This document shows positions 8,020 to 31,874 of a stretch of DNA of 64,000 nt, in pieces. This stretch comes from Kineococcus endophyticus (lineage in GTDB: Bacteria > Actinomycetota > Actinomycetes > Actinomycetales > Kineococcaceae). Every line of letters begins with the position of its first letter. Positions within the stretch are counted from its first letter, which is position 1. The stretch spans positions 1 through 64,000 of the forward strand of contig NZ_JBFNQN010000009.1 in NCBI RefSeq assembly GCF_040796495.1, given 5' to 3'. The notes below the pieces were generated by a model. The model made no database searches and was not told where the DNA came from. It saw only the letters and a program-made list of their open reading frames with translations. The translations under genes were made by a program, and so were the position numbers.

Positions 8020-8037
8020 GGGCGCAGCGCACGCACG

Positions 8038-8142
8038 GGGACACCCACGGGGGAACTCACGTGGAGTGAGACGCGGGTGTCCCGAACCGGTCGCCCCGAC
8101 GACGCCGAGCGGCCACCCACGGGTGTTCCCACGCCCGGTCCC
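8038..8142. repeat. Intergenic dispersed repeat, copy A
   Basis: This copy of about 105 bases differs from copy B (8244-8348) at roughly five positions. It begins GGGACACCCAC, contains an inverted-repeat hairpin with an inner CTCAC/GTGAG stem, and ends near GGGTGTTCCCAC and GGTCCCAC. A third, inverted copy is split by the IS110 element at 27586-29213. The repeats lie between genes and have no credible coding content. Confidence 0.8.
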
Positions 8143-8243
8143 ACCTGGTGGCAGCCGTCGGACCGGCCAGCCGGTCGTCAGGACGACGCGCGCCCCGGTC
8201 CCACCCCCGGTCCGACGTCGCGCCGGGCCGCAGGACACCCATC

Positions 8244-8348
8244 GGGACACCCACGGGGGAACTCACGTGGAGTGAGACGTGGGTGTCCCGAACCGGTCGC
8301 CCCGACGACGCCGAACGGCCACCCACGGGTGTTCCCACCTCCGGTCTC
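8244..8348. repeat. Intergenic dispersed repeat, copy B
   Basis: Copy B follows copy A in direct orientation with a 206-base period. GGGACACCCAC (8244-8254) and GTGGGTGTCCC (8280-8290) form a perfect 11-bp inverted repeat. Nested inside is CTCAC/GTGAG, giving a two-tier hairpin. Upstream, GGACACCCATC is an extra partial unit. The gap of about 423 bases between the LysR and superoxide dismutase genes holds only these repeats and a terminator. Confidence 0.8.
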
Positions 8349-8383
8349 ACGGCCCGTGCCGCGCGACGGCCACGGACGCAGCA

Positions 8384-26459: not shown

Positions 26460-27473
26460 GTGCTCCGCGCCCTGCCCCGCCCCACCTCCCCGATCGCCGC
26501 GCTCGTCCCCGGTCTGCTCGTCGTCGCTCTCGCCACGGTGGTCGCCCTCGGCCTCGAACGTCTGACGCACGTCCTGACGGCCTCCACGGTCGCCGTGGCG
26601 CTGGGGGCCCTCGTCCGCTCCACCGGCGCGTTCCGGCCGTCCTGGAAGCCGGCGACCGGCTTCGCGTCCAAGCGGCTGCTGCGGATCGCGGTCGTCCTGC
26701 TCGGGCTGCAGCTGCCGCTCTCACAGGTGCGGGACCTCGGGTGGGGCGGGGTCGTCCTCGTCGTCGGGGTCGTCGTCGTGACGTTCACCGGCACCCAGGT
26801 GCTGGGCCGCGCGCTCGGGCTCGGCCGGGACCGCTCACTGCTCGTCGCGACGGGGTTCTCGATCTGCGGGGCGTCGGCCATCGCCGCGGTGCGGCCCGCG
26901 ACGGACGCCGACGAGGAGGACGTCGCCACCTCCATCGCCCTGGTGACGCTCTGCGGATCGCTGGCCATCCTGCTGCTGCCGTTGCTGCGCAGTCCGTTCG
27001 GCCTCGACGTCCACGCCTTCGGCGTGTGGGTCGGAGCGAGCGTCCACGACGTCGGGCAGGTCGTCGCCACGGGCGACCGGGTGCCCGGAGCGCTCGAGAC
27101 CGCCGTCGTCGTGAAGCTCTCCCGCGTGCTGCTGCTGGCACCGCTCGTCGCCCTCGTCGTGCTGCACCGCCGCCGGACAGTGCCCGCCACCGACTCCACC
27201 GCCCGCCCCCCGGTCCTGCCGTTCTTCGTCGCCGCCTTCGTCGCCGCCGTCCTCGTGCGCGCCACCGGCGTCGTGCCCACCGCCGCCCTCGACGCCGTGC
27301 AGCACGTGCAGTCCGTTCTGCTCGTCGCCGCGCTGTTCGCGCTCGGGACGGGGATCGACGTCCCGCACCTGCTGCGGACGGGCGGGCGGTCGCTGGTGCT
27401 GGGCCTCAGCTCGTGGGTGCTCGTGGCGGGGGTGTCGCTCGCCGGGGTGCACCTGCTGCACGTCGGCGGCTGA
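26460..27473 (+). CDS. YeiH/UPF0324 family putative transporter
   Basis: The 337-residue protein has about 10 hydrophobic segments and the family marks F-S-I-C-G-A-S-A-I-A-A near residue 140 and A-S-V-H-D-V-G-Q-V near 193. YeiH (UPF0324) proteins are often annotated as sulfate exporters, on weak evidence. GTG 26460 follows the divergent sugar isomerase gene by 162 bases. Downstream lie the split third repeat copy and the IS110 element, so no operon partner is visible. Confidence 0.85.
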   Translation: MLRALPRPTSPIAALVPGLLVVALATVVALGLERLTHVLTASTVAVALGALVRSTGAFRPSWKPATGFASKRLLRIAVVLLGLQLPLSQVRDLGWGGVVLVVGVVVVTFTGTQVLGRALGLGRDRSLLVATGFSICGASAIAAVRPATDADEEDVATSIALVTLCGSLAILLLPLLRSPFGLDVHAFGVWVGASVHDVGQVVATGDRVPGALETAVVVKLSRVLLLAPLVALVVLHRRRTVPATDSTARPPVLPFFVAAFVAAVLVRATGVVPTAALDAVQHVQSVLLVAALFALGTGIDVPHLLRTGGRSLVLGLSSWVLVAGVSLAGVHLLHVGG

Positions 27474-27502
27474 CCGCGGCCGGTCCCGCGCCTGCACCCA
27501 CG

Positions 27503-27585
27503 TCTGACCGGGCGTGGGACCAGGCGTGGGAACACCCGTCGGTGTCCTCCCCGCGTCGTCGGGGCGACCGCCTCGGGACACCCAC
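27503..27585. repeat. Intergenic repeat copy C, left half (interrupted by IS110)
   Basis: In reverse complement this reads GTGGGTGTCCC, then CGGTCGCCCCGACGACGC, then ACGGGTGTTCCCACG and GGTCCCAC, aligning along its length with copies A and B. It ends at GGGACACCCAC (27575-27585), where the IS110 element begins. The remaining half resumes at 29214. Confidence 0.75.
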
Positions 27586-27629
27586 ACCTAATGGGCCTTA
27601 CCGGCACCGGAAGTAGTTCTAGGGTCCGG

Positions 27630-27815
27630 TACCGGTAGCGACTGGTGGGTCAGCACTCACCACATCTGGAGCGCGTGAGGCCTGGAGTGAGACCGTGCGC
27701 CCATCAGCCGCGAGAAGGCGCGCACTACTGCTGGGATGACGTAGCCCCCCAGGAGGCCCCGACGGGGGCCGCCCTCCGGTGAGCACTCGACCATTAGGTC
27801 GTCAGCAGCCTTCTC
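27630..27815 (+). ncRNA. Putative IS110 bridge RNA
   Basis: The leader before the transposase can fold into two loops. First: stem CTGGTGGGT (27642-27650) with GCCCATCAG (27699-27707) encloses GGAGTGAGAC (27684-27693), the exact complement of the target half GTCTCACTCC in repeat copies A and B. Second: CTGCTG (27728-27733) with CAGCAG (27803-27808) encloses CTGGGATG (27731-27738), identical to the right end of the element (29207-29214). Then come a GGCCCC-gac-GGGGGCC hairpin and CCATTAGGT (27791-27799), complementary to the left end ACCTAATGG (27586-27594). This order matches known bridge RNAs: a target loop, then a donor loop with left and right guides. RNA limits are estimated. Confidence 0.65.
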
Positions 27816-27892
27816 CTCGCTACCGGGCACGACCTGGCACCGCCCCTCGGTGCCGGGCAGGAGCGCAGACGAGCAGATGGAGGCGAACACCG

Positions 27893-29194
27893 ATGGCGCT
27901 GTTCATCGGGGACGACTGGGCCGAAGACCACCACGACATCCTCATCACCGACGAGCACGGCAAGAAGCTGGCCAAAGCCCGCCTGCCCGAAGGCCTGGCC
28001 GGGATCGAGCGGTTGCACGCCCTGGTCGCCGAGCACCTCACCGACGCCGACGTCGACCCAGTCACCGGCCACCTGGCCAGCGATCGGGTCGTCGTCGGCA
28101 TCGAAACCGACCGCGGCACCTGGGTCGTAGCACTGGCCGCGGCCGGCTACACCGTCTACGCCCTGAACCCGATGCAGACCGCCCGCTACCGCGAGCGGTA
28201 CTCCACCTCCGGAGCCAAGTCCGACGCCGCCGACGCCGCGGTCCTGGCCCGCATCGTGCGCCAAGACCGTGAGCACCACCGGCCGTTGGCCGCCGACAGC
28301 ACCGACGTGGTCGGGCTGAAGATCGCCACCCGCGCCCATCAGTCGCTGATCTGGGACCGCACCCGGCACCTGCTGCGGCTGCGCTCGACCCTGCTCGCCT
28401 TCTACCCCGCTGCCTTGCAGGCTTTCGGTGAGGTCGGTATCGAGCTGGGTGAGGCGGACTGCCTGGAGCTGCTGGCCGCTGCGCCGGACCCAGACCGGGC
28501 CCAGGCCCTGTCCCGCTCGAAGATCGCTGCGATGCTGCGCCGGGCCGGGCGACGGGAGGTGGAGGCCAAGGCCGAGGCGATCCAGGCCGTGCTGCGGGCT
28601 GCGGCGTTGCGTCAACCCGACCCGGTCCAGCGGGCCTACGCCGCCTCGGTCAGCGCCTCGGTCAGCGCCTCGGTGGGGTTGCTGGTCGCGCTGCGGACCC
28701 AGATCGGTGAGCTGGGGCAGGTGGTGGGGCAGGGTTTTGGTCAGCACCCGGCCGCTGAGATCTACCTCAGCCAGCCGGGCCTGGGACCGGTCCTGGGAGC
28801 GCGGATGCTGGCCGAGTTCGGCGACGCCCCCGGCCGCTACCGCGACGCGCGGGCGCGGAAGAACTACGCCGGGACCTCCCCGATCACCCGGCGTTCTGGG
28901 ACTCGCAAGAACGTCCTGGCCCGCTACGCCCGTAACCGCCACCTGGCCGACACCGCCTACCAGCAGGCCTTCTGCGCCCTGCAGGGCTCACCCGGAGCTC
29001 GGGCCTACTACGACATCTGCCGGGCCCGCGGGGCCAACCACAACGCCGCCTTACGGCAGCTGGCCAACCGGCTGATCGGGATCCTGCACGGCTGCCTGCG
29101 CCACGGCACGCTCTACGACGAGGCCACCGCCTGGCCCTGTCCTGCCGGGCGAGCACCGGTGCCGACTCCCCAGCCGGCAGCTGCCGCCGCTTGA
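27893..29194 (+). CDS. IS110-family transposase (recombinase)
   Basis: The 433-residue protein has an N-terminal RuvC-like DEDD domain (I-G-D-D-W-A near residue 5, G-I-E-T-D near residue 78, K-S-D-A-A-D-A near residue 110), a helical middle, and a C-terminal Transposase_20 domain. That domain has Q-P-G-L-G-P-V-L-G near residue 295 and S-P-I-T-R-R-S-G-T-R-K near residue 330, with the probable catalytic serine. It is intact and full length, so the element may be active. A short in-frame duplication gives the repeat S-V-S-A-S-V-S-A-S-V near residue 255. The ATG at 27893 follows GGAGGCG. Confidence 0.95.
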   Translation: MALFIGDDWAEDHHDILITDEHGKKLAKARLPEGLAGIERLHALVAEHLTDADVDPVTGHLASDRVVVGIETDRGTWVVALAAAGYTVYALNPMQTARYRERYSTSGAKSDAADAAVLARIVRQDREHHRPLAADSTDVVGLKIATRAHQSLIWDRTRHLLRLRSTLLAFYPAALQAFGEVGIELGEADCLELLAAAPDPDRAQALSRSKIAAMLRRAGRREVEAKAEAIQAVLRAAALRQPDPVQRAYAASVSASVSASVGLLVALRTQIGELGQVVGQGFGQHPAAEIYLSQPGLGPVLGARMLAEFGDAPGRYRDARARKNYAGTSPITRRSGTRKNVLARYARNRHLADTAYQQAFCALQGSPGARAYYDICRARGANHNAALRQLANRLIGILHGCLRHGTLYDEATAWPCPAGRAPVPTPQPAAAAA

Positions 29195-29213
29195 CGCCGC
29201 CAAGCCCTGGGAT

Positions 29214-29280
29214 GTCTCACCCCACGTGGGTGTCCCGATGGGTGTCCCCGTGGGTGTCCCGATGGGTGGCACCGTGGGCG
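29214..29280. repeat. Intergenic repeat copy C, right half
   Basis: The sequence resumes with GTCTCACCCCACG, matching the inner part of copies A and B in reverse orientation. It then repeats GTGGGTGTCCCGAT twice in tandem, each followed by a further partial GGGTG unit. This end is more degenerate and more reiterated than in copy B. It fills the gap between the IS110 element and the LacI gene. Confidence 0.7.
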
Positions 29281-29298
29281 CACCGTGACGAGCGGCCC

Positions 29299-30309
29299 TC
29301 AGTCCCCGAACTCCGCCAGCACCACCGGCACCGTCGTCCGGCGCGGCGGCGCCTCCGACCCGCCCATCCGCTCCACGAGCAGCCGCGCGGCCTGGCGGCC
29401 GACGTCGACGGGGTCGTAGGTGGCGAGGGCGACGCGGTCGACGAGCACCTCCGCGAGCTCGACGGCGTCGAACCCGCCGATGACGACGTCGGCGCGGGCG
29501 CGGTGGACGGCCAGGAGCGCGCCGACGGTCATGCGGTTGTTGTCGCAGAACACCGCGGTCGGCGGCTCGGGCAGGGCCAGCAGGTCCTGGGTCGCGGTCC
29601 GGGCCTCCTCGCTGCTGTGCTGGTTGAACCGCAGCAGGTCCCGCTCCTCGCGCACCCCGGCGGCGCGCAGGGCGGCACGGAAACCGGAGTAGCGCTTCGC
29701 GCCCGTGCCGGACCCGCGGTCGCCGCCGACGTAGGCGATGCGCCGGTGCCCGCGGTCCAGGAGGAGCTGCGTCAGCCGGCGGCTGCCCCCGGCGTTGTCG
29801 AGGAGCACGACGTCACCGCGCACGCCCTTGGGCAGGCGGTCGACGAACACGATCGGCGCCCGCTCGGCCAGCGCCGCGTACCGGCCCTCGGCGTCGTCGT
29901 CGCCGGGCACCATGAGGACGCCGTCGACCCGGCGGCGCAGCAGCTCCCCGACGATCTCCTTCTCCCGCACCTGGTCGCGGTCGCCGAGGGCGTCGCGGCC
30001 GGTCGAGAGCAGCAGGACGACGTACCCGGAGGCGGCGGCGACGATCTCGACGCCGTGGGCGAGCTCGGCGGAGAACGGGTTGGTCAGGTCCTCCACGACG
30101 AGCGCGATCGTCGCCGTCCGCTGACCCGGCCGCAGCGTGCGGGCGCTCTCGTTGCGCAGGAAGCCGAGGGCGGCGACGGAGGCCTCGACGGTGGCCCGCG
30201 TGACGGGGTCGACGTACTTCTCGGCGTTGACGACCCGCGACACCGTGGAGATGCTGACCCCGGCGTGCTCGGCGACGTCCCGCATCGTGGGGGGCCGGCC
30301 CTGTCCCAC
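29299..30309 (-). CDS. LacI-family transcriptional regulator
   Basis: The 336-residue protein begins with the LacI helix-turn-helix T-M-R-D-V-A-E-H-A-G-V-S-I-S-T-V-S-R-V-V-N (about residues 8-28) and hinge helix, then a sugar-binding domain of periplasmic-binding type (about 65-330). There is no membrane segment. A palindromic LacI-type site lies 43 bases upstream, suggesting autoregulation. Its other targets might include the sugar isomerase at 25482 or genes outside the window. The ligand is probably a sugar, not specified by the sequence. An alternative start is the ATG at 30285. Confidence 0.92.
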   Translation of the reverse strand: MGQGRPPTMRDVAEHAGVSISTVSRVVNAEKYVDPVTRATVEASVAALGFLRNESARTLRPGQRTATIALVVEDLTNPFSAELAHGVEIVAAASGYVVLLLSTGRDALGDRDQVREKEIVGELLRRRVDGVLMVPGDDDAEGRYAALAERAPIVFVDRLPKGVRGDVVLLDNAGGSRRLTQLLLDRGHRRIAYVGGDRGSGTGAKRYSGFRAALRAAGVREERDLLRFNQHSSEEARTATQDLLALPEPPTAVFCDNNRMTVGALLAVHRARADVVIGGFDAVELAEVLVDRVALATYDPVDVGRQAARLLVERMGGSEAPPRRTTVPVVLAEFGD

Positions 30310-30351
30310 GTCGACCTCCTCGTCGCGCGTCCCTGTGAACCCTGGGCGTGC

Positions 30352-30365
30352 TGTGAACGTTGTCA
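30352..30365. promoter_or_regulatory. LacI-type operator candidate upstream of lacI gene
   Basis: TGTGAACGTTGTCA has the symmetrical form TG-N2-AACGTT-N2-CA, the core of many LacI-family operators. A partial copy TGTGAACCCT lies about 20 bases nearer the gene. The site fits autoregulation of the adjacent regulator. Confidence 0.5.
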
Positions 30366-30422
30366 GCGCACAGTAGACGACCCCCGGTGCCGCGTCACGA
30401 CTCCGGGCCCATCACCCACTCC

Positions 30423-31874
30423 TCACCGCAGGACGCGGGTGAGCCGGTCCACGCGGCCGATCGTCCGCAGGGCCGCAGCCACCCCCGCCGGCGGGTCGGA
30501 CACGAACGTGTCGCGCCGCCGCAGCTCGTCGAAGTCGATCCGGTCGCCCCGCGGGAAGTCCACCCCGGCGCCGGCGAGGACCGCCGCGAACTCCTGCGCG
30601 ACGAGCCCGTACCCGCACGACGTGGGGTGCAGGCCGTCGAGGCCGATGAGACCACCGGCCAGCAGCCGGCCCGCGTCGTCGGTGGCGGGGAACCGGGTGT
30701 CCAGCCCGCGCAGGGCGTCCGGCAGCGGGTAGGGCGCGAACTCCGGCGGACGCGCACCCAGTTCGTCGTTGCGGCGCACCGCGAGCCGGTCGAGCATCGC
30801 GCCCACGTCCACGACGCGCCAGTCCCGCCCCTGCTCCCGCGCGGCGCCGACGACGTCGAGCAGGGCCCGGTTGTAGCCGTCGATGGCCTGGTCCACGGCC
30901 CACGCGTCGAACCCCGTGAGGTGCCCGTCGCGGTCGGGGTCGAAGGTCTCCTCGGTCGCCCACGGACGGCCGTACCAGCGGAAGTACCGCCCGCACTCCG
31001 GCAGCGGCCCGCCGAGTCCGTGGACGATGGGCGGGATCGTCACGTGCGGGACGGTCCCCCACAGCACGCGGTCGGTGTCGACGTCGGCCACCGCCCGCGC
31101 GACCTCGGCCAGCTCGGCGGTGAAGTCGGGGACCGTCCACACCGTGTAGGCGTCCTTGGCGTCCAGCTCGCGGAAGCGCGGTCCGCTCGCCACGACCCGC
31201 AGCTGCACGACGCTGCGCAGCGCGTTGTTCGCGCCGAGCCACACGCAGAGCGACTCGACACCGCCGTCGAGGTCGCGCACGGCCCGCAGCGACGTCAGGG
31301 CCTCCCCCGTGACCGAGCGGGAACCGTCGAGCACCTCGACGGCGGCCCGGGCGTTGGGCGCCTGGACCAGGGGGTTGAGGCGGTGCCACCACCCGGACCG
31401 CACCCGGGCGCGCTCGGTGTCCGCCGTCCGCGCGAGGTGGTCGCGCAGGTCCCAGCCCCAGACCGCGAGGTCCTCGTAGCGGGGGCCGCCGCGCGCGCCC
31501 GGCGGCCGCTCGTAGGCGCGTTGCACCTCCAGCGCGTACCTCAGCCCGCCGACGAGGGTGGGCACGAGCGGGCGACCGAGCGCGCGGCGGGCCAGGAACT
31601 CCAGGTTCAGCGGGTAGCCACCGGGACCGTCGTCCTGCGGGCGGGCGAACGGCACACCGAGGAGGTCGGCGACCAGCGCCGGCCAGGACAGGGCGCGGTC
31701 GTGGACGGCGTAGTGCTTGAACCCCTGCGTGAGGGAGTCGCCCACCGCGGCGAACCGGTGCGTCCGCGGTCGCGGGGGTCGCGGTGGGACGTCGACGCCG
31801 AGCGTCGGGTCCTGGACCGGGGGCCGGACGGCCGTCGTCAGGGTCAGCCCGAGGTCGGACGCGGCGGTCGGCAC
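30423..31874 (-). CDS. SGNH/GDSL-family hydrolase
   Basis: The 483-residue protein has the blocks of SGNH hydrolases: A-V-G-D-S-L-T-Q-G near residue 43 (nucleophile Ser), W-L-G-A-N-N-A near residue 209 (oxyanion Asn), and D-G-L-H-P-T near the C-terminal third (catalytic Asp and His). No signal peptide is visible, so it may act inside the cell. The substrate could be an ester of a lipid or a sugar; it is not indicated by neighbours. The GTG at 31874 is chosen because the frame further upstream is antisense to pdxH. The start is 57 bases from the divergent pdxH gene. Confidence 0.83.
   Translation of the reverse strand: MPTAASDLGLTLTTAVRPPVQDPTLGVDVPPRPPRPRTHRFAAVGDSLTQGFKHYAVHDRALSWPALVADLLGVPFARPQDDGPGGYPLNLEFLARRALGRPLVPTLVGGLRYALEVQRAYERPPGARGGPRYEDLAVWGWDLRDHLARTADTERARVRSGWWHRLNPLVQAPNARAAVEVLDGSRSVTGEALTSLRAVRDLDGGVESLCVWLGANNALRSVVQLRVVASGPRFRELDAKDAYTVWTVPDFTAELAEVARAVADVDTDRVLWGTVPHVTIPPIVHGLGGPLPECGRYFRWYGRPWATEETFDPDRDGHLTGFDAWAVDQAIDGYNRALLDVVGAAREQGRDWRVVDVGAMLDRLAVRRNDELGARPPEFAPYPLPDALRGLDTRFPATDDAGRLLAGGLIGLDGLHPTSCGYGLVAQEFAAVLAGAGVDFPRGDRIDFDELRRRDTFVSDPPAGVAAALRTIGRVDRLTRVLR

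What the first reader, a model, noticed from the sequence alone, without database searches (positions are those of the whole stretch)
27586..27892. IS110 leader carries segments matching both ends of the element and its target: a readable bridge RNA
Inside the leader, CTGGGATG (27731-27738) equals the right end (29207-29214) and CCATTAGGT (27791-27799) is the reverse complement of the left end ACCTAATGG (27586-27594). They flank a strong GC hairpin, the order expected for left and right donor guides. GGAGTGAGAC (27684-27693) is the exact complement of the target half GTCTCACTCC in intact repeat copies, and lies in an upstream loop closed by a 9-bp stem. A left target guide is only weakly visible (27658-27667). 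Bridge RNAs of IS110 elements (studied in IS621) use this architecture. Applying it here is inference, but the matches are direct.
Basis: partly seen in the sequence, partly recalled or inferred. Interest (0 to 1): 0.88.

Follow-up and report, generated by a model that had tools for sequence, protein, structure and literature searches.

The report
Bridge RNA of an actinobacterial IS110
A jumping gene carries, just upstream of its enzyme gene, a guide RNA of the recently discovered "bridge RNA" kind whose loops spell out both its own ends and the chromosomal repeat it jumped into; the reading is convincing but it is a further example of a known mechanism.

Summary
An IS110-group element (27588-29215, second CT core 29216-29217) carries a bridge RNA in its left end. 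A covariance model built from 40 relatives without the window finds it at 27625-27830 (116.6 bits, E 1e-27); 29 of 48 model pairs have changes on both sides. Target guides of relatives track their own genomic flanks (37 non-redundant elements; none of 10,000 permutations reached the observed means). The right donor guide pairs with the own left end in 41 of 41. The guides' 14-nt target word points to the repeat family in which the element sits: 3 of 3 one-mismatch genome sites lie in it. The joined ends would form a TTGACG-18-TCTAAT promoter. Bridge RNAs of IS110 elements were published in 2024, so this is a new member of a known kind. Transcript and recombination were not testable.

The parts
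27588..29215 (+). IS110-group element (left CT core included; the right CT core is 29216-29217)
   Evidence: Ends set by the CT core and end motifs shared with relatives; one full-length copy in the genome
27588..27589 (+). left CT core
   Evidence: left end CTAATGG, as in relatives
29216..29217 (+). right CT core
   Evidence: right end GGGATGT-CT, as in relatives
27625..27830 (+). [quoted passage not shown] the transcript would start further upstream (inference)
   Evidence: 116.6 bits, E 1.1e-27, model built without the window
27659..27667 (+). left target guide ACCACATCT (includes core CT)
   Evidence: fixed register in relatives; against own left flank CCCACACCT 7 Watson-Crick, 1 G-U, 1 mismatch
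27684..27691 (+). right target guide GGAGTGAG (includes core complement AG)
   Evidence: fixed register; 7 of 8 with own right flank CTCACCCC, 8 of 8 with the repeat copies at 8063 and 8269
27692..27693 (+). putative handshake guide AC of the target loop; faces donor bases GT before the core (29214-29215)
   Evidence: first base A faces T in 40 of 41 elements, but is invariant, so covariation cannot test it
27731..27740 (+). left donor guide CTGGGATGAC; equals right end CTGGGATGTC with one mismatch (A27739)
   Evidence: in relatives the first position follows the right end in 35 of 44 against 18.5 expected (window not among the 44)
27741..27786 (+). GC-rich apical stem-loop of the donor-binding loop, with a longer loop insert than the model consensus (approximate limits)
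27791..27797 (+). right donor guide CCATTAG
   Evidence: pairs with the own left end in 41 of 41 elements, two of them with one G-U
27798..27799 (+). putative handshake guide GT of the donor loop; faces target bases AC before the core (27586-27587)
   Evidence: first base pairs (Watson-Crick) with the target base before the core in 36 of 41, permutation mean 23.1, max 33
27893..29194 (+). IS110 recombinase, 433 aa
   Evidence: Pfam DEDD_Tnp_IS110 and Transposase_20; solved relatives IS621 and ISCro4; D7, E71, D111, D114, S335 conserved
29191..29196 (+). -35-like TTGACG, 18 bp from the -10-like T-CT-AAT that forms when the ends are joined
   Evidence: spacer 17 or 18 in 45 of 45 non-redundant elements
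27514..27589 (-). left half of the interrupted intergenic repeat (target)
   Evidence: 27514-27583 is 89% identical to the repeat at 8034-8150
29216..29252 (-). right half of the interrupted repeat
   Evidence: 29214-29252 is 85% identical to the repeat at 8034-8150; joined flanks line up with intact copies
8034..8350 (+). two uninterrupted copies of the target repeat

Best explanation
The leader encodes a bridge RNA. After the recombinase excises the element as a circle, the joined ends form a promoter (TTGACG, 18 bp, TCTAAT across the core) that transcribes the left end. The RNA folds into a target-binding loop and a donor-binding loop. The left and right target guides (27659-27667, 27684-27691) pair with the bottom and top strand of a palindromic intergenic repeat around its CT; the left and right donor guides (27731-27740, 27791-27797) pair with the joined ends around theirs. 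The recombinase exchanges strands at the two CT cores, and two bases after each right guide then pair with the other DNA (handshake). Shown here by sequence: fold, guide-flank and guide-end covariation, target repeat, open reading frame with conserved catalytic residues, promoter parts. Inferred from published IS621 work: transcription, binding, excision, recombination, and the working of the handshake.
For: Model built without the window hits it at 116.6 bits, next best in 64 kb 7.7. Structure: 96.8% of cells paired, 29 of 48 pairs with changes on both sides; 0 of 500 shuffles as high on each of five measures, slid versions far lower. Target guides against own flanks: LTG 8.76 of 12 own, 6.13 other; RTG 8.11 of 11 own, 5.70 other; permutation maxima 7.08 and 6.46; n=37. 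With 24 elements whose guides all differ and the core left out: LTG 5.67 of 7 against 3.36, RTG 4.54 of 5 against 2.08. RDG 41 of 41 own, 747 of 1640 cross-pairs. LDG first position 35 of 44, permutation max 29. Handshake base 36 of 41, permutation max 33. Guide word CCACATCTCACTCC: 3 of 3 one-mismatch and 8 of 15 two-mismatch genome sites lie in the repeat family. Same-guide copies in one genome sit at like sites: 10 of 10 right flanks CTGACC in S. blattellae, two copies in G009.
Against: The window's right target guide has one A-C mismatch with its own flank, its left donor guide one mismatch, and LTG position 1 does not pair. By identity three other repeat copies match the guide word better (1 mismatch against 2 at the used site); with G-U counted they tie. 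The word read backwards, the tool's control, has 13 sites at up to 2 mismatches against 18 for the word itself, so the count alone is unremarkable; only the location of the sites speaks. The window keeps 2 of 4 apical pairs of the target loop, and its lone fold is modest (z -2.09; 5 of 200 shuffles fold as well). Some copies in relatives have left flanks that fit their guides less well (L076, L081, L082). Relatives are not independent, so permutation results overstate significance. End motifs used to select elements fix part of the RDG and promoter matches. No RNA data.
Confidence: 0.95

Rival explanations
1. The leader is a regulatory 5' region or sRNA that controls transposase expression, as reported for the IS110-family ISPpu9, and the guide matches are by-products.
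For: Structured leader just upstream of the gene; regulation by two sRNAs is reported for ISPpu9 (PMC8450116, start of abstract in the listing only).
Against: Regulation does not predict that loop bases track the genomic flanks of each element or pair with both ends in fixed register. Both roles could coexist.
Confidence: 0.03
2. The matches are chance similarities in GC-rich DNA.
For: A match of 8 or more to the right end occurs in 4.8% of shuffled leaders; 3 other window 15-mers reach the 13 of 15 of the real site and 53 reach 12.
Against: Fixed register and covariation in relatives; model E 1e-27 without the window.
Confidence: 0.005
3. Target choice is made by the protein recognising the palindromic repeat, and the RNA only serves donor recognition.
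For: The target is a palindromic repeat, and IS of other families also enter REPs (PMC1525189, passages).
Against: Relatives with 54-66% identical recombinases sit at different sequences that match their own target guides.
Confidence: 0.015

Closest known systems
IS621 bridge RNA system (IS110 group; Durrant 2024 PMC11208160, Hiraizumi 2024 PMC11208158)
   Same: RNA in the left end; target loop, then donor loop; left guides pair with the bottom strand and right guides with the top strand; CT core; promoter across the joined ends; positions of handshake bases after the right guides; insertion into extragenic palindromic repeats
   Different: Distant recombinase (phmmer E 1.8e-6); right target guide pairs over about 7 nt in relatives (IS621 4 in the structure); right donor guide pairs over 7 contiguous nt (IS621 discontiguous); different repeat as target
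ISCro4 transposase (PDB 9t56)
   Same: IS110-type recombinase with a solved structure, best sequence match among solved chains (E 2.3e-9)
   Different: Distant; its RNA was not compared here
ISEc21 seekRNA (IS110 type; PMC11187229, passages)
   Same: RNA from the upstream non-coding region; bottom-strand match precedes top-strand match, the order found here
   Different: A 74-nt RNA with the target matches is reported there; RNA length is unknown here
IS1111-group seekRNA elements (PMC11187229, passages)
   Same: DEDD transposase and target-matching RNA
   Different: RNA lies downstream of the gene and the order of the two target matches is reversed; not so here

Membership tests
IS110 family | DEDD RuvC-like domain plus Transposase_20 domain with conserved Ser | tested here: met
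   PF01548 E 6.9e-30, PF02371 E 1.6e-11. In 78 aligned proteins (window and 77 of 80 relatives): D7 78, E71 77, D111 77, D114 78, S335 75. D111, D114 and S335 line up with D102, D105 and S241 of IS621 (chain numbers shifted by two); D7 and E71 are assigned by motif, not by that alignment
IS110 group (against IS1111) | long non-coding left end, short right end, RNA in the left end | tested here: met
   305 nt before the ATG, 21 nt between stop codon and right core; model match in the left end
IS110 bridge RNA system | two internal loops in one RNA, first for target, second for donor | tested here: met
   consensus fold and pair counts; guides lie in those loops
IS110 bridge RNA system | left guides equal the top strand, right guides are its reverse complement, core included | tested here: met
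   LTG, RTG and RDG include the core, LDG its C only; that IS621 is alike in the last point is my reading of its base numbering
IS110 bridge RNA system | guides covary with target and donor across relatives | tested here: met
   exceptions
IS110 bridge RNA system | promoter across the joined ends | tested here: met
   TTGACN with 17-18 bp in 45 of 45, TCTAAT in 41 of 45. Elements had been selected with TTGA near the right end and with CTAAT-like left ends, so only the spacing is free of selection
IS110 bridge RNA system | RNA is transcribed and binds the recombinase | not testable with these tools
   needs RNA sequencing and a binding assay
IS110 bridge RNA system | excision to a circle and RNA-guided recombination | not testable with these tools
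   needs bench work
IS110 group | short 2-3 bp subterminal inverted repeats flanking the donor | not tested
   no call made
REP-inserting IS | insertion at one point of a repeated extragenic palindrome | tested here: met
   one insertion only: joined flanks line up with uninterrupted copies
Rfam families | match to a curated RNA family | tested here: not met
   7 matches at E up to 1 in 26500-30500, all below their gathering scores, none overlapping 27588-27892

The most novel reading that the evidence does not exclude
Handshake bases, not only target guides, decide which copy of a variable repeat is used. The element sits in a copy reading AC before the core, which pairs fully with its donor-loop handshake bases (G-C, U-A). 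The three uninterrupted copies closest to the guide word read GT, GT and AG there; GT would pair with the target-loop handshake bases AC, an arrangement that in IS621 locks the complex before strand exchange. Natural repeat families would then be ready-made tests of the handshake rule. It rests on one insertion; one uninterrupted family copy (C1:447182) also reads AC but differs just after the core; and 9 of 41 relatives have T before the core facing the target-loop A, so avoidance is not general. Probability lowered from 0.3 on recount, because with G-U counted the used copy ties with the others in guide pairing.
Probability: 0.25. Interest if true: 0.5.

Novelty: new member of a known kind. 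Interest (0 to 1): 0.38.

Why it matters
It shows that a bridge RNA can be read from the raw sequence of a single copy and then verified with relatives. It adds a clade with 44 further non-redundant elements and natural guide-target pairs, and covariation that agrees with the handshake bases proposed from IS621 (whether these relatives were in the published data set is unknown). Compact RNA-guided recombinases with naturally diverse guides are useful starting points for DNA-insertion tools. The mechanism itself is already published.

Tried and rejected
Whole-leader search for guide matches without a fixed register (n=52) gave only a modest excess (LTG 7.40 against 6.75, permutation max 7.02; RTG 7.06 against 6.38, max 6.66), because 8-9-mers match somewhere in 300 nt by chance; LTG best hits fell repeatedly at one distance from the anchor, which led to the fixed-register test. 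One search misplaced the left ends of L013, L014 and L023; one search preferred CTAAT ends. The left end of L020 is still misplaced (inside its leader); L020 is in none or A1. misread the RDG register in L034, L073 and L096 (38 of 41 there); one search corrected it (41 of 41).

Counts and drops: 82 records were examined (window, L003-L082, L096); 74 kept, 8 dropped for want of a recognisable end (L011, L012, L019, L028, L041, L044, L056, L077). Of the 74, 9 lacked the right-guide anchor; 47 had anchor and flanks; 37 non-redundant; 24 with all-distinct guides; 42 with flanks, L027 skipped, 41 counted. A1: 40 of 45 non-redundant leaders (window left out on purpose; L020, L024, L027, L035 lacked the second anchor); 44 of 45 (the window's own LDG did not fit the search pattern). 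L088 was stored reversed and its ends were only read. One search kept the best 80 of 348 relatives. One search scored 40 of 178 candidates, so its 22 rows, some overlapping on opposite strands, may be incomplete. RDG was sought with the pattern NNAT[TCG]AG and left ends with CT[ACG]AT[ACG][AG], so only the variable positions of that test are informative.

Handshake, weaker parts: the second base is above chance with Watson-Crick pairs only (19 of 41 against 9.1, max 17), not when G-U counts (22 against 18.7, P 0.12); one slid control is borderline with G-U (23 against 19.8, P 0.054), the Watson-Crick slid controls are null. LDG at the donor base before the core does not covary (28 of 44, 28.3 expected). 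Core positions of LTG and RTG pair alike in own and swapped comparisons and carry no information.

Synteny in G003 gave no empty-site allele: the stretch with the IS and most of the repeat has no counterpart between the same two genes. No Rfam family fits. Literature: PMC11208160 (outline with abstract, passages, sections 5 and 12), PMC11208158, PMC1525189 and PMC11187229 (passages); everything else search listing only. Searches; none of the listed titles is about this element, and subscription papers are not held. The host is called actinobacterial because the record titles name genera that I recall as actinobacterial; no taxonomy look-up was made. That D102, D105 and S241 are catalytic in IS621 is from PMC11208158 (passage).

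Full report
Observation. The element is an IS110-group insertion sequence with one full-length copy in the genome and an open frame of 433 codons (27893-29194) that matches DEDD_Tnp_IS110 over the whole model and Transposase_20. The matching solved chains are ISCro4 and IS621. In an alignment of 78 proteins (window and 77 of 80 relatives) D7, E71, D111, D114 and S335 are conserved in 75 to 78; D111, D114 and S335 line up with D102, D105 and S241 of IS621, D7 and E71 are assigned by motif.

Chance. In 5000 dinucleotide shuffles of the leader the donor-guide words occurred in 0.26% (CTGGGATG) and 0.5% (CCATTAG), never together. A looser criterion on the right end is met in 4.8% of 3000 shuffles. 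The joined target site scores 13 of 15 pairs with the guides, reached by 3 other 15-mers on both strands of the window, one of them an uninterrupted repeat copy (8269). The single element is suggestive; relatives were needed.

Relatives. A scan of genome contigs found 348 relatives and kept the best 80, with 54-66% identity in the best segment; a same-genus genome, G009, added two copies. Typical ends are CTAATGG at the left and GGGATGT-CT at the right. In a fixed register set by a conserved anchor, the left target guide pairs with each element's own left flank and the right target guide with its own right flank: 8.76 of 12 against 6.13, and 8.11 of 11 against 5.70, with permutation maxima of 7.08 and 6.46 among 10,000 (37 non-redundant elements). 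The right guide pairs in 95-100% of elements at its last six positions, the last two being the uninformative core. With 24 elements whose guides all differ, core excluded, the contrast remains (5.67 of 7 against 3.36; 4.54 of 5 against 2.08). The right donor guide pairs with the own left end in 41 of 41, two with one G-U, against 747 of 1640 swapped pairs, with compensating changes among CCATTAG, CTATTAG, CCATCAG, CTATGAG, TGATTAG, TCATTAG and TTATTAG. The left donor guide follows the right end at its main variable position in 35 of 44, 18.5 expected, permutation maximum 29.

Structure. RNAalifold on 40 relatives, window excluded, gives 48 pairs, 29 with changes on both sides. None of 500 shuffles is as high on any of five measures and slid versions are far lower. 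The model built from it finds the window at 27625-27830 with 116.6 bits; the next hit in 64 kb has 7.7. Among 11 same-genus genomes it matches in 4: the window's own, two copies in G009 and single weaker ones in G006 and G002. The window has a longer insert in its donor-loop hairpin and keeps 2 of 4 apical pairs of the target loop. Its lone fold is modest (z -2.09). No Rfam family reached its gathering score.

Target. The flanks are the two halves of an intergenic repeat of about 110-120 nt; the search listed 22 matches, some partial or overlapping. Joined, the flanks read CGGGACACCCACAC-CT-CACCCCACGTGGGTGTCCC and line up with uninterrupted copies such as CGGGACACCCACGT-CT-CACTCCACGTGGGTGTCC. 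The word spelled by the guides, CCACATCTCACTCC, has no exact match in the genome; 3 of 3 one-mismatch sites and 8 of 15 two-mismatch sites lie in listed copies of this repeat (positions compared). The tool's control, the word read backwards, has 13 sites, so the number of sites alone is unremarkable; their location in a family that covers a tiny part of the genome is the evidence.

Handshake. In IS621, bases just after the right guides pair with the other DNA after strand exchange, and covariation there was reported across IS110 orthologues (PMC11208158, passages). Here the base after the right donor guide pairs with the target base before the core in 36 of 41 (permutation mean 23.1, maximum 33 of 20,000). 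The next base pairs in 19 of 41 by Watson-Crick only (mean 9.1, maximum 17), but is not above chance when G-U counts (22 against 18.7). Watson-Crick slid controls are null; one is borderline with G-U (P 0.054). The AC after the right target guide likewise faces GT at the right end (29214-29215); this cannot be tested by covariation because the A is invariant.

Promoter. Joined ends give TTGACG, 18 bp, TCTAAT in the window, and TTGACN with 17 or 18 bp in 45 of 45 non-redundant elements, TCTAAT in 41. Elements had been selected with TTGA near the right end and CTAAT-like left ends, so only the spacing is free of selection. This matches the junction promoter described for IS110 elements (PMC11208160, section 5).

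Copies within one genome. In Streptomyces blattellae 10 of 10 right flanks begin CTGACC, complementary to the right guide, and 5 of 7 left flanks end CCGCCT. Two G009 copies with the same target loop sit at CCGGAACCT and TCGGTACCT, both followed by CTGTCAAGCTC. Against: in L076 (Actinopolymorpha) and L081 and L082 (Kibdelosporangium) the right flank fits while the left flank fits less well.

Known or new. Bridge RNAs of IS110 elements were published in 2024; that paper predicts one in 85.7% of IS110s (PMC11208160, section 12), and IS110 elements in REPs were surveyed in 2006 (PMC1525189, passages). This element is a new member of that kind. What is added is a further clade with natural guide-target pairs, covariation that agrees with the handshake bases, and the hint that the copy used differs from the closest uninterrupted copies at the handshake positions. 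That last point rests on one insertion and stays a hypothesis.

Noticed in passing
window 8034-8350 and genome-wide: An intergenic repeat family of about 110-120 nt with a palindromic GGGACACCCAC...GTGGGTGTCCC part; the search listed 22 matches to 8034-8150, some partial or overlapping, two full ones close together in this window.
   Followed up: partly
window 29222-29269: Direct repeats of period 12 just right of the element, made of the repeat's stem sequence (GTGGGTGTCCC and variants).
   Followed up: no
L160 (G003): In a same-genus genome the two flanking genes are adjacent without the IS and without most of the repeat, so the repeat was gained in one lineage or lost in the other.
   Followed up: partly
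L055 and L057-L072 (Streptomyces blattellae): Seventeen of the listed loci are contigs of this genome that end at or near one IS110 relative, so it is multi-copy and breaks the assembly.
   Followed up: partly
L076, L081, L082: Copies whose right flank fits the guides but whose left flank fits less well; off-target insertion or later rearrangement are possible.
   Followed up: no
L096 and L100 (G009): One G009 recombinase copy is listed as two adjacent open pieces and so looks broken, while the RNA model still matches upstream of it with 161.7 bits.
   Followed up: no
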